From: an uncultured Pseudomonadaceae bacterium
GTDB taxonomy: Bacteria; Pseudomonadota; Gammaproteobacteria; Pseudomonadales; Pseudomonadaceae
NCBI GenBank assembly: GCA_947630465.1
Contig: CANRHT010000047.1
Span: 1 to 11,522, forward strand
Reading direction: 5' to 3'
Length of the DNA: 11,522 nt
Shown: positions 1,939-7,085 of the stretch, piece by piece
How positions within the stretch are numbered: position 1 is the stretch's first letter
Layout: every line of letters starts with the position of its first letter
Notes under the pieces: model-generated
What the model saw: only the letters and a program-made list of their open reading frames with translations
The model's database searches: none
Told to the model about the DNA's origin: nothing
Position numbers and translations under genes: made by a program

Positions 1939-2991
1939 TTGATAAAGCATAGAAATTGGCTGGTGAGCGCCGTTGTACTGGGCTTGCTCGCAGGGTGCAC
2001 GGATAACTAAGAGGCCACTGAACAGGCTGAAGTATCACGTCCCGTGCCTATGTTGGTGGTCGGTGCTTCTGATCAAGCGTCAAACCTGCGCTTTCCTGGA
2101 CGTGTGCGTGCCGCGCAGCGTGCTGATCTCGCCTTTAACGTTGCTGGGCAGGTGATAGAACTGCCTGCTGAAGAAGGCCAACATGTGCAAAAAGGTGATT
2201 TGGTCGCGCGTCTCGATGATGCCAATTACCGCATTCAAATGCGCTCATCCTTGGCCAGCTACAACAAAGCGCGCACCGATTATCAGCGTGTTGAACAACT
2301 GTGGCAGCGCAGCCAAGCGGTGGCGAAAGCTGAAGTGGATAAGCAGCGCACCGCGATGGATGTTGCACAAGCCGAATATGCCCTAGCGAAAAAGGACTTT
2401 GACGACACACGTTTAGTTGCACCTTTTAATGGCGTAGTGGCCAAGCGTTATGTAGAAAACTACAGCAACGTGCAAGACAAAGAAGCCATCGTCAGTCTGC
2501 AAGATTTAGCCAATTTAGAAATTGTGATTAATGTGCCCGAGCGTGTGGTGCGCAATACGCCTAAGCAGTTGGCAGGCTTTGCTATTTTTGCTGATCAACC
2601 GCAAGAGCTGTTGCCGATCACCTTAAAATCTTTTTCGGCAGCCAGCGACAGTCAAACACAAAGTTATGAAGTGGTGATGGCGCTTGAGCCGGGCTATACC
2701 TTGACCGTGTTACCGGGCATGTCAGTGAGTGTTGTGCCGCAGCAAGACTTGGCTGGAATGAGTGATGGGCTGGTTAAAGTGCCCTTGCAAGCGATTTACT
2801 CCAGCGCAGATAACGTGACTGGTGTCTGGCAAGTCGATCCGCAAACATCACGCGTCAGCCTGCAAGAGGTTGAGGTGGGTGAGGTGTTAGGTACAGATAT
2901 TTTGGTGCATAAAGGGCTTGAGGGCGGCGAGCGCATTGTCACGGCTGGCGTCAGTCAATTGCGTGACGGTATGTTAGTTCGTGAGCTTTAA
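1939..2991 (+). pseudogene. RND efflux periplasmic adaptor (MFP/HlyD family) lipoprotein, interrupted by an in-frame TAA at codon 24
   Basis: Read from TTG 1939, codons 1-20 form a lipoprotein signal peptide: basic start (IKHRN), hydrophobic core, then LLAGC with the lipidated Cys at codon 20. Codon 24 is TAA (2008-2010). The same frame then continues uninterrupted to TAA 2989-2991. The mature part has MFP architecture: first lipoyl half (GQVIELPAEEGQHVQKGDLV), an alpha-helical hairpin of about 65 residues rich in Ala, Lys and Gln, second lipoyl half (LVAPFNGVVAKRY), then beta-barrel and membrane-proximal regions. Total length of about 350 codons is normal for the family, whose members bridge an RND pump to an outer-membrane channel. 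Without readthrough only a 23-residue peptide is made; restart at 2044 or 2050 would lack the signal peptide and leave the protein in the cytoplasm. I call it a pseudogene, but readthrough or sequence error is possible. The permease follows after 36 nt. Confidence 0.8.
2008..2010 (+). other. Premature in-frame TAA in the adaptor gene
   Basis: The context is GAT AAC TAA GAG GCC, between the lipobox and the mature adaptor. One C-to-T change from CAA (Gln) would account for it; AAA (Lys) or GAA (Glu) are also one change away. The reading frame is open on both sides and the coding character continues across the stop. Confidence 0.85.
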
Positions 2992-3027
2992 GCTCGGCTT
3001 GATCATCAATAAAAGGCGTATTTTAAA

Positions 3028-6000
3028 GTGAATATTGCGCAATACACACTGGCTAAGCGTACCATTGCTTGGATGTTTACTCTGCTGGTGTTGCTGGGTG
3101 GCTATATCAGTTACGAAAAACTTGGGCGCTTTGAAGACCCCGAGTTTGTGATTCGCTAAGCGGCGATTACCACCTCTTATCCCGGCGCTATGCCTGAGCA
3201 AGTGGCTGAAGAAGTCACTGAGGTGATTGAAGAAGCGGTGCAGCAACTGCAAGAACTGAAAGAAGTCACTTCCGTCTCACGCATGGGCAGTTCTTTGGTT
3301 AAAGTGGAAATCGACTTAGAGTTTGCCTCCAGTCGCGCGGAGCTGGAGCAGGTGTGGGATAAGCTGCGACGTAAAGTCAATGACATTCAATACAAGCTAC
3401 CACCGGGTGCGGGGCCGTCTTTTGTTAATGATGACTTTGGCGATGTGTATGCACTGTTTTTTGCGGTCACCGGTGAAGGTTACAGCTTACAAGAGATCAA
3501 AGACTACTTAGATGACCTTGAACGTGAGTTATTACAGGTGCCGGGAGTGGCACGCGTAGCCACCTTGGGTGAGCCAGAAGAGGCGATTTTTATTGAAATT
3601 GCCGCTGCGAAAGCCGCACAGTTAGGCATTGCGCAAGACGATATTTATCGCTCGTTACGTCAGCAAAACGTGATTACAGATGCCGGTAATCTATTAATTG
3701 GTGCACAGCGTGTGCAGTTCAGCCCGCAAGGCCAAGTCGATTCCGTGCAGGCCTTGGGTGATATCGCTTTAGGTTCGCCCAGCGGCGAGCAGGTGATTTT
3801 TCTTAAAGACATCGCCACTATCACCCGCTCCACGGTTGAGCCACCGCGCGCCTTGATGAGCTTTGATGGCAAGCCTGCGATCGGTTTGGGTATTTCTCAA
3901 GTGGCTGGCGGTAACATTGTCGATATGGGCGATGCGGTGCGCGCGCGTTTAAAAGAGTTGGATTCACAGCGCCCAATTGGCATTGATTTACAGATCGTCT
4001 CGTATCAGTCTGATTCGGTACGCGAAGCTGTGGATGGTTTTGTTGCTAACCTAGCCGCCGCCGTGGCAATTGTGGTGTTGGTGCTGATTGTTTTTATGGG
4101 TTGGCGCAGCGGCGTTATTGTTGGCACCGTGTTACTGCTGACCGTCGCAGCAACCTTAATCACCATGTACATGGATAATATCGCCATGCAGCGGGTGTCG
4201 CTGGGTGCGTTGATTATTGCGCTGGGTATGTTGGTGGATAATGCCATTGTAGTCACCGATGGCATTTTAGTGCGCATGGAGCGCGGCGAGGCGGCTGAGA
4301 GTGCTGCTAGTGCTGTGGTGAAAGGCACGCAAATGCCGTTACTCGGTGGCACTGTGGTGGGTATTTTAGCCTTTAGCGCGATTGGCTTGTCACCAACGGA
4401 TATGGGTGAATATGCCGGCTCATTGTTTTGGGTGATTCTCTATTCCATGCTGTTCAGCTGGCTGTTCGCGGTCACTTTAACGCCGCTGCTGTGCGTAACC
4501 CTGCTGAAAGTGAAAGTTAAGCCCGCTGATGCGCAAGAAAAACAAAGCGGTGTTTTATTTCGCTACCGTGGATTGCTCAATGTAGCCTTGCGTCATCGTC
4601 TCTTTACTGGGGCGTTAATGCTGACATTACTGGGCAGTGCCATTTTTGGATTTAAATGGGTGCAACCCGGCTTTATGCCCGATTCGGCGCGGCCACAATT
4701 TGTCGTGGATATGTATCTGCCGCAAGGTTCGGACATTCGTGAAACGGCGCAAGAGTTAGCAGCGATGGCGGACTACGTGCAGGACAAAGAGGGAGTGACA
4801 CATGTCACACGCTTTGTCGGTCAGGGTGGTTTGCGCTTTATGCTCACCTACAGCCCAGAAGACCCTAATAGCAGTTATGGGCAGCTGTTGATTGATGTGG
4901 AGGATGACTCAGGTATTGCCGAGTTGGTGGATGAGTTACAGCATGAGTTGGCCGAGCGTCACCCGTTAGCCGCCATTAAAGTTTGGAAGTTTATGCTGGG
5001 CCGTGGTGGTGGTAAAAAGATTGAAGTGGCCTTTAAGGGCCCAGAAGCAACGGTGCTGCGCAATTTGGCTGAGCAAGCTAAAACCATTATGGCGCAAGAC
5101 TCAGGGGCGATTGCGATTCAAGATGACTGGCGTGATAAAACGCCGGTGCTGCGCCCAGTGGTCAATGAAGTGGCGGCACGCCGTGCGGGTGTTGATATCA
5201 CCCAGATCAGTCAAGCTTTAAATCGTGCGTTTACCGGTGAGCGTGTCGGTGTCTATCGTGAAAAAGATAAACTGATTCCCATTATCGCCCGTGCTCCCTT
5301 AAGCGAGCGTGAGCTGGCGCAAGATATTGAAAACGTCCAAGTCTATAGTCCTACTGCGCATAAATACTTGCCCATCAGTCAATTGGTCAGCGAGGTTAAG
5401 GTTGAGTGGGCCGATGCGATTTTACGTCGCGTGGATCGTTTTCCAACCATTATGGCGCAGACCGACCCCTTGCCGGGCGAGCAGGCTGATCCCTTGTTCA
5501 ATCGCTTAAAACCACAGATCGAGGCCATTGAGCTGCCGCCAGGTTACAGCTTGGAATGGCATGGTGAATATAAAGATTCCAATGAGTCCAATGAAGGTCT
5601 CGCGATCTCAGCGCCTTATGGCTTTACCGCGATGATTTTAGCTGTGGTGTTGATGTTTAACTCACTGCGCCAACCTTTAGTGATTTGGCTCACCGCGCCC
5701 TTAGCGATTATTGGTGTGACTGTGGGTTTAGTTATTTTCCAAGTGCCTTTTGAGTTTATGGCCATCTTAGGTTGCCTGAGCTTGGTGGGGATGTTGGTGA
5801 AGAACTCGATTGTGTTAGTCGATCAGGCCGATGTGGAAATACGTGAGGGTAAGCCGCCCTTTATTGCTGTGATTGATGCCGCGGTGAGTCGTGCACGACC
5901 GGTGTTTTTGGGGGCTTTTACCACCATTTTAGGTGTTGCACCGCTGCTGTTTGACCCCTTCTTTAAGAGTATGGCAGTGGTGATTATGTTTGGTCTGACC

Positions 6001-6090
6001 TTTGCTACGATCTTGACCTTAGTGGTGGTGCCGCTGCTGTATGTCGTGGTGTTACGCATACCAACGCCCAGCGAGGCCACACAGAGTTAA
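3028..6090 (+). pseudogene. RND-family efflux permease, interrupted by an in-frame TAA at codon 44
   Basis: Read from GTG 3028, the frame spans 1020 sense or stop codons, the normal length of a proton-driven RND pump. Codons 1-43 hold the N-terminal transmembrane helix (about 11-30) and the family-typical LGRFEDPEFVIR; codon 44 is TAA (3157-3159), followed in frame by AAITTSYPGA, so the stop sits where homologues continue, often with Gln. The rest is intact: porter loops, TM helices 2-6, a second large loop and TM 8-12. TM4 carries LVDNAIVV with Asp404 as the proton-relay acid (Asn405 replaces the second Asp of AcrB), and TM10 carries LVKNSIVLVDQ with Lys925. Substrate is unknown; no outer-membrane channel gene is in the window. 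Restart at ATG 3190 would remove TM1 and upset topology, so function needs readthrough or correction. A weak AAAAGG lies 11 nt before the GTG. Confidence 0.85.
3157..3159 (+). other. Premature in-frame TAA in the RND permease gene
   Basis: The context is ATT CGC TAA GCG GCG, in the conserved segment between the first transmembrane helix and the first periplasmic loop. CAA (Gln) is the most likely ancestral codon (inference from family wording such as FVIRQA). It is the only stop in a frame of about 3 kb. Its C-TAA-G surroundings match those of the stop at 2008. Confidence 0.88.
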
Positions 6091-6121
6091 GCCAAATCAG
6101 GGGAGTAGGTGAACACAGACT

Positions 6122-6148
6122 AAAAAAGCGCCATTGCGGCGCTTTTTT
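6122..6148. terminator. Bidirectional rho-independent terminator between convergent genes
   Basis: A perfect 11-bp stem (AAAAAAGCGCC with GGCGCTTTTTT) encloses the 5-nt loop ATTGC. The GC core plus T-run works in both directions. It lies 31 nt after the permease stop and 32 nt past the stop of the minus-strand methyltransferase, so it can end both transcripts. Confidence 0.93.
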
Positions 6149-6180
6149 ATGTGTAGTTTCAGTGTGATTTTGAGGAGTAC

Positions 6181-6759
6181 TCAGTGTGCCAGCAGCAGCG
6201 CATTCAGCCACTGCTCATCACTGCGCTCAGGGCGTTGATCATTGCTCACCCAAAAGCTATCTAAGGTCAGGCCTGTGCCGGCTAAAAAGCCAATTAAGCG
6301 CTCTTCCGTGCAGTTGGTAAAATGACGGCCATCGCGTACATTGTCGTCTTCGCCATATTTGAAGGATACGTAAATAACCCCTTGCGGCATTAATAGCTGA
6401 GCTAAATGGCGCAGTGTGCCATTCAATTGTGCCGCTGGTACGTGCAATAACGAAGCGCAGGCCCAGATGCCAGCAAAGCGTTGTTCGTTTTCATAGGCTA
6501 AAAAAGTGCTGTGCTGGATCTCAATGTTGCTGACCTTGCGTGCAATTTCAACCAGTTTAGCACTGGCATCAAAGCCGCTCACTTCATAGCCCAACTGTAA
6601 GAATGCCGCCACATCACGTCCAGCACCGCAGCCTGCATCTAAAATAGGGCCGGGTTGTGGTAAGGCGGATAAAAAGCGCTCATAGATGGCGCTCATATCA
6701 ACGTCGAGCGTGTTGGCAGCAAATTGCTCTGCGTTATCTTCGTAGAATTTCAGTGACAT
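6181..6759 (-). CDS. Class I SAM-dependent methyltransferase
   Basis: This 192-residue protein opens with SLKFYEDNAEQFAANT, a start typical of a family of small stand-alone methyltransferases. SAM motif I, ILDAGCGAGRDV, is at residues 39-50, an acidic loop (VSGFDAS) follows, then a motif near IWACASLLHVP at about 97-107 and a late YVSFKYGE. It is a soluble cytoplasmic enzyme; the acceptor is not evident. The ATG at 6757-6759 has AAAGGA on the minus strand about 9 nt upstream, a good Shine-Dalgarno sequence. It is not closely related to the methyltransferase at 1163, as the motifs around the core differ. It is convergent with the efflux operon and divergent from zapE. Confidence 0.88.
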   Translation of the reverse strand: MSLKFYEDNAEQFAANTLDVDMSAIYERFLSALPQPGPILDAGCGAGRDVAAFLQLGYEVSGFDASAKLVEIARKVSNIEIQHSTFLAYENEQRFAGIWACASLLHVPAAQLNGTLRHLAQLLMPQGVIYVSFKYGEDDNVRDGRHFTNCTEERLIGFLAGTGLTLDSFWVSNDQRPERSDEQWLNALLLAH

Positions 6760-6790
6760 GGCTATTTCCTTTCAATGATAACGAGAGTCG

Positions 6791-6886
6791 TCAGTGCAGT
6801 ATGCAAGATAAGCGCATGCGACTCCAGCCAAGTATCCTGCTATAGACTCGCATAGATGAGGCTGGCATCTACTTGTACTGCACTGA
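6791..6886. repeat. Nested inverted repeats in the zapE upstream region
   Basis: TCAGTGCAGTA (6791-6801) and TACTGCACTGA (6876-6886) are perfect 11-bp complements. Inside them CCAGCC (6824-6829) pairs with GGCTGG (6860-6865), so a nested fold is possible. A separate GAGTCG (6785-6790) pairs with CGACTC (6819-6824). CGCATGCG at 6813-6820 is palindromic. There is no T-run, so it is not a terminator. Confidence 0.55.
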
Positions 6887-7044
6887 TCACCTGTGTGCGC
6901 TGAAGTGTGTTCAGTGTTGCACGCTCTATACTGCATTGGTTTGTACTTCTGCGGCTTGATCTGCGACCATTCACTGCACGTTAAGTGTGATCTGCAGCAT
7001 GGAGTCTGCTGAGATGGCACCGAGTCGCTGTAGTGAAGATTGAC

Positions 7045-7058
7045 ACTGCAATTGCAGT
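7045..7058. repeat. Perfect 14-bp palindrome ACTGCAATTGCAGT before zapE
   Basis: The site is fully self-complementary and lies 27 nt before the zapE ATG. It has the size of a dimeric regulator's operator and joins two copies of the ACTGCA word that recurs in this region. A regulatory role is inference. Confidence 0.6.
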
Positions 7059-7085
7059 ATGGGCATGGCAAGCAGGATGTAAAGA

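What the first reader, a model, noticed from the sequence alone, without database searches (positions are those of the whole stretch)
1939..6090. Two neighbouring efflux genes each carry one in-frame TAA near the 5' end and are otherwise intact
Seen: adaptor stop at 2008-2010 (codon 24) and permease stop at 3157-3159 (codon 44), with open, family-typical frames before and after (about 1.05 and 3.06 kb) and no frameshift. Known: the adaptor needs its lipoprotein signal, and the pump needs its first membrane helix. Inference: both read as CAA to TAA, the same C-to-T change in the same C-TAA-G context. Random decay would more often hit anywhere in 4 kb and add frameshifts. Options are very recent stepwise inactivation, selection for pump loss, ochre readthrough or suppression, or base-level error.
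Basis: partly seen in the sequence, partly recalled or inferred. Interest (0 to 1): 0.8.

Follow-up and report, generated by a model that had tools for sequence, protein, structure and literature searches.

The report
Efflux pump operon recently switched off
Two neighbouring genes for one bacterial export pump each carry a single early stop signal and look otherwise intact, which most likely means that this environmental bacterium lost the pump very recently, an ordinary event.

Summary
The adaptor gene (TTG 1939 to 2991) has an in-frame TAA at 2008-2010 (codon 24 of 350) and the permease gene (GTG 3028 to 6090) one at 3157-3159 (codon 44 of 1020), with no other in-frame stop. The window is a contig of a 76%-complete draft genome in the Denitrificimonas caeni group. 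Aligned relatives have sense codons at the sites: 34 of 35 (1 gap) and 36 of 36. The downstream frames show strong purifying selection without clear relaxation. Of 236 genes compared only these two are clearly interrupted; four others stay unresolved. TAA is the commonest ordinary stop here, and no UUA-anticodon tRNA was found in the incomplete assembly.

Best explanation: a dispensable TriABC/MexJK-like RND operon inactivated very recently by two separate nonsense substitutions. Base error is unlikely but not excluded without reads; readthrough has no positive support. Interest is low.

The parts
1939..2007 (+). 5' piece of the adaptor gene: TTG start, signal peptide and lipobox-like LAGC (23 codons)
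   Evidence: TTG in 8 of 9 and AGGAG in 9 of 9 congener rows
2008..2010 (+). in-frame TAA in the adaptor gene (codon 24)
   Evidence: aligned relatives: 34 of 35 sense codon, 1 gap
2011..2991 (+). rest of the adaptor frame (326 codons, then normal TAA), RND periplasmic adaptor (TIGR01730)
3028..3156 (+). 5' piece of the permease gene: GTG start and first membrane helix region (43 codons; helix placed by family knowledge, not by a call)
3157..3159 (+). in-frame TAA in the permease gene (codon 44)
   Evidence: 36 of 36 aligned relatives have a sense codon
3160..6090 (+). rest of the permease frame (976 codons, then normal TAA), RND permease (PF00873)

Best explanation
This is a two-gene RND efflux operon (periplasmic adaptor plus inner-membrane permease, nearest solved relatives TriABC and MexJK) in an environmental Denitrificimonas, and it has become a very young pseudogene pair. 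Shown: one TAA in each gene, otherwise open frames, sense codons in relatives, constraint kept downstream. Inferred: translation stops after 23 and 43 residues, so no lipid-anchored adaptor and no complete permease are made; the two stops arose by separate substitutions, the second probably after the first had removed selection on the operon; other pumps make it dispensable.
For: Relatives: adaptor site 34 of 35 aligned rows sense and 1 gap, permease site 36 of 36 sense; of the 38 loci, 2 had no adaptor match and 1 only a late part, and 2 had only a late part of the permease. In 9 of 9 congeners checked again neither site is a stop. The orthologous adaptor and permease are found in 9 of 11 other genomes of the genus with no stop in the listed matches, the permease being split over contigs in G003 and G005. 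Constraint: permease dN/dS 0.036-0.054 to seven congeners, adaptor 0.061-0.092 in the five of seven where it could be computed. Distance to four outgroups is not raised: permease excess -0.0069 (95% -0.0178 to 0.0041), adaptor 0.0102 (-0.0156 to 0.0353). Of 236 compared genes (81,815 aligned codons) only these two are clearly interrupted. Three other large RND permease matches in this genome carry no stop, one of them lacking its N-terminal part.
Against: No expression, read-level or phenotype data, and no second genome of the same species (nearest permeases 86-91% identical). The tally of interrupted genes is not blind: the window was put in by design, and the adaptor's stop too lies ahead of its Pfam domains; it is counted because start, AGGAG and lipobox are conserved. 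Four other genes stay unresolved (L083, L098, L103, L201) and three have odd N-terminal regions (L084, L093, L096). The window's permease dN to congeners (0.070-0.080) is higher than that among congeners (0.030-0.062), and in Tajima tests the adaptor has an excess of window-specific changes against 2 of 7 congeners (chi-square 6.40 and 5.16, uncorrected); the outgroup test does not show an excess in either gene.
Confidence: 0.77

Rival explanations
1. Base-level or assembly error, or a minority allele of a mixed population written into the draft consensus.
For: The genome is a draft in 308 contigs, 76% complete; raw reads were not available; no same-species copy could be compared.
Against: Of 236 genes compared only these two adjacent ones are clearly interrupted (four unresolved); scattered errors would be expected to hit other genes too. 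Each gene has one substitution-type lesion and no frameshift.
Confidence: 0.14
2. A variant of the best explanation: loss of the pump was favoured by selection (an energetic or proton-leak cost, or no substrate in the habitat), rather than drifting in.
For: Two stops sit in one operon. Among 70 strong RND matches (E up to 3.1e-35, contig fragments included) in 12 genomes of the genus, 2 carry an in-frame TAA, the second in another pump of another species (G002). Repeated loss of an RND pump subunit, tied to a habitat, is published for Neisseria gonorrhoeae mtrC (PMC7431566, passages seen).
Against: One genome only; two stops in a dispensable operon need no selection. The operon was not found in G001 and G011, but these are draft genomes, and G011 is nearly identical in another pump gene to G008, which has the operon.
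Confidence: 0.2
3. The stops are read through, or translation restarts behind them (GTG 2044, ATG 3190), so that a working or modified pump is still made.
For: The downstream frames are constrained, and possible start codons lie 12 and 11 codons on from the stops.
Against: A restarted product would lack the lipoprotein signal and the first membrane helix. TAA is the main ordinary stop: 422 of 688 ORFs of 150 aa or more in the sample. Of 23 tRNA matches, those that ARAGORN classified include no UUA anticodon; five matches stayed unclassified. No congener has a stop at either site (9 of 9). Constraint is equally explained by recency.
Confidence: 0.03

Closest known systems
RND tripartite efflux systems, TriABC/MexJK branch (PDB 6vej, 20yy, 9xwg)
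   Same: Permease residues 5-961 of the downstream piece match 6vej_A (E 3.4e-161) and 3-958 match MexK; the adaptor piece matches the adaptor chains of 6vej and 20yy, after an unnamed putative efflux transporter, 4l8j. That 6vej is TriABC is recalled.
   Different: One adaptor gene only; TriABC has two (recalled). No outer-membrane channel gene was seen among the window's listed ORFs that were scanned. Both genes here carry a stop.
Recent loss-of-function alleles of efflux genes in natural populations (mtrC and farA in gonococci, PMC7431566, passages seen)
   Same: Disabling changes in proton-driven efflux genes while intact copies circulate.
   Different: There the lesions were mainly frameshifts in short repeats and were tied to a body site; here there are two nonsense codons in one draft genome with no ecological data.

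Membership tests
RND efflux operon (adaptor plus permease) | permease matching PF00873 over its full length | tested here: met
   downstream piece: profile 54-1020 of 1021, E 1.5e-142; whole locus 2-1020 with one TAA counted
RND efflux operon (adaptor plus permease) | periplasmic adaptor of TIGR01730 next to the permease | tested here: met
   211.6 bits against a cut-off of 94.9
TriABC system proper | two adaptor genes before the permease (recalled) | tested here: not met
   one adaptor frame between 1939 and 2991; the ORF before it is methyltransferase-like, below the curated cut-offs
recent pseudogene | disabling lesion absent from orthologues | tested here: met
   34 of 35 (1 gap) and 36 of 36 aligned relatives have sense codons; 9 of 9 congeners
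recent pseudogene | no relaxed constraint or further lesions yet | tested here: met
   two of seven adaptor Tajima tests point the other way
recent pseudogene | no functional product | not testable with these tools
   no expression or protein data
ochre suppression or recoding | tRNA reading UAA | tested here: inconclusive
   none among the tRNAs classified; assembly 76% complete, five of 23 matches unclassified
ochre suppression or recoding | TAA conserved at the sites in relatives | tested here: not met

The most novel reading that the evidence does not exclude
The two TAA codons are tolerated because this lineage reads through, or restarts behind, ochre codons often enough to keep a little pump. 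The stops would then act as a translational dimmer on one operon, and the single TAA in another pump of the related genome G002 would be a second case.
Probability: 0.03. Interest if true: 0.65.

Novelty: new member of a known kind. Interest (0 to 1): 0.15.

Why it matters
It is a clean snapshot of an efflux operon caught at the start of its decay in an environmental relative of Pseudomonas. It suggests that a pump kept by 9 of 11 sampled congeners can be lost. A gene-calling pipeline could count it as a working efflux pump, which it probably is not. It changes no concept.

Tried and rejected
Rejected: genetic-code change (TAA ends 422 of 688 long ORFs sampled). Rejected: one shared change at both sites. 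Rejected: an extra lost start codon in the adaptor; the codon after TTG is not ATG in 5 of 9 intact congener rows either. Rejected: special stop context. The first count over seven congeners was widened to nine; this raised the codons one substitution from TAA at the adaptor site from 0 of 7 to 1 of 9.

Other flagged genes in the comparison of 236 (833 reference ORFs were offered): 17 besides the two operon genes. Nine have early stops ahead of the first Pfam domain of the reference protein; in 7 of these 9 a start codon with an SD-like stretch follows within 2-11 codons, so they look like start-site differences, and L098 and L201 lack the SD-like stretch and stay unresolved. Three have stops in the last residues (L109, L112, L209). 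L083 (175 of 192) and L103 (240 of 294) stay unresolved. L084, L093 and L096 show frame changes ahead of the domain.

Led nowhere: promoter and terminator scan at chance level; plasmid search gave one partial match (7% of the query, 73.8% identity); tRNA scans of the window and of sampled contigs gave no suppressor; paper searches on readthrough of bacterial pseudogenes returned nothing; the other listings were seen only as listings. The print was usable for two of nine loci, because several loci lie on the other strand; one search replaced it. Eleven weak PF00873 matches (E 7.9e-12 or worse) also carry stops; I take them for ends of other families but did not check.

Full report
What is there. 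The adaptor frame begins at TTG 1939 and is stopped by TAA at 2008-2010; the permease frame begins at GTG 3028 and is stopped by TAA at 3157-3159. Each is the only in-frame stop before the normal end: codon 24 of 350 and codon 44 of 1020. The pieces behind the stops, searched apart, are an RND periplasmic adaptor (TIGR01730, 211.6 bits) and an RND permease (PF00873, E 1.5e-142). Among solved structures the permease is nearest to 6vej (TriABC, name recalled) and MexK, and the adaptor to a putative efflux transporter (4l8j), 6vej and MexJ.

Whose genome. The window is contig 47 of a draft genome of 2,196,778 bases in 308 contigs, 76% complete. The closest permeases (86-91% identity) belong to the Denitrificimonas caeni group; G009 is D. 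caeni DSM 24390 by its contig length. That the genus is environmental is recalled. No same-species genome was available, and the protein database was switched off.

Relatives. One search gave 38 loci. Two had no adaptor match (L026, L030) and L020 only a late part; L026 and L030 had only a late part of the permease. In the alignment of the rest the adaptor site is a sense codon in 34 of 35 rows and a gap in 1, and the permease site a sense codon in 36 of 36. Inside the genus 9 of 11 other genomes hold the orthologous adaptor and permease without stops in the listed matches, with the permease split over contigs in G003 and G005. They were not found in G001 (83% complete) and G011. G011 is nearly identical to G008 in another pump gene, and G008 has the operon, so absence from a draft is weak evidence.

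One cause for both stops? In nine congeners the permease site has one residue in 9 of 9, and 6 of 9 codons are one substitution from TAA. At the adaptor site the commonest residue stands in 7 of 9, there are three residues in all, and 1 of 9 codons is one substitution from TAA (in the seven the figures were 5 of 7 and 0 of 7). So one repeated C-to-T change is not supported; two different substitutions are more likely. The C-TAA-G context is common (13 of 167 TAA). The 5' position of both stops is mildly unusual (combined p about 0.02, post hoc).

How old? The downstream permease has dN/dS 0.036-0.054 to seven congeners and the adaptor 0.061-0.092 in the five of seven where it could be computed; synonymous sites are near saturation, so these values are rough. 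The window's permease dN to congeners (0.070-0.080) exceeds that among congeners (0.030-0.062), but distances to four outgroups show no excess for the permease (-0.0069, 95% -0.0178 to 0.0041) or the adaptor (0.0102, -0.0156 to 0.0353), which fits an earlier branch rather than acceleration. Tajima tests exceed 3.84 for the adaptor against 2 of 7 congeners (6.40, 5.16, uncorrected) and for the permease against 0 of 7. The stops are therefore probably young; the adaptor may have been released slightly earlier. Two nonsense changes without a frameshift are not surprising when there are only two lesions (inference).

Error, decay or readthrough? Of 833 reference ORFs from 42% of G008, 236 had a match in the sampled 42% of the draft genome (81,815 aligned codons); only the two operon genes are clearly interrupted. 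Seventeen others were flagged. Nine have early stops ahead of the first Pfam domain, and 7 of these have a start codon with an SD-like stretch 2-11 codons on; three have stops in the last residues; L083, L098, L103 and L201 stay unresolved; L084, L093 and L096 have frame changes ahead of the domain. The tally is not blind, since the window was in it by design, and the adaptor's stop too lies ahead of its domains; it is counted because TTG, AGGAG and the lipobox are conserved. The draft is thus not riddled with false stops, which speaks against base error without excluding it. TAA is the main ordinary stop (422 of 688). Of 23 tRNA matches, those that ARAGORN classified include no UUA anticodon; five stayed unclassified, and the genome is incomplete. 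A restart behind the stops would give an adaptor without its lipoprotein signal and a permease without its first helix, which by general knowledge of RND pumps should not work.

Verdict. A dispensable RND operon, very recently inactivated by two separate nonsense substitutions. Drift and selection cannot be separated. Loss of RND pump function in natural populations is known (gonococcal mtrC, PMC7431566, passages seen). Among 70 strong RND matches (fragments included) in 12 genomes of this genus, one other, in G002, carries a single in-frame TAA, a hint that pump genes are lost now and then here.

Noticed in passing
L137 2657-5764, minus strand (G002:C8): Another Denitrificimonas draft genome has a different RND permease split into 276 and 759 codons by a single in-frame TAA, otherwise open.
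   Followed up: partly
L021, L035, L038: Shortened open frames of the adaptor (L021) or permease (L035, L038) in more distant relatives; they may be sequencing frameshifts.
   Followed up: no
window 6091-7085: The permease and the zapE-like gene are about 1 kb apart here but about 5 kb apart in G008 (L138), so gene order behind the operon differs.
   Followed up: no
L178 1500-1595: A selenocysteine tRNA is predicted in this draft genome.
   Followed up: no
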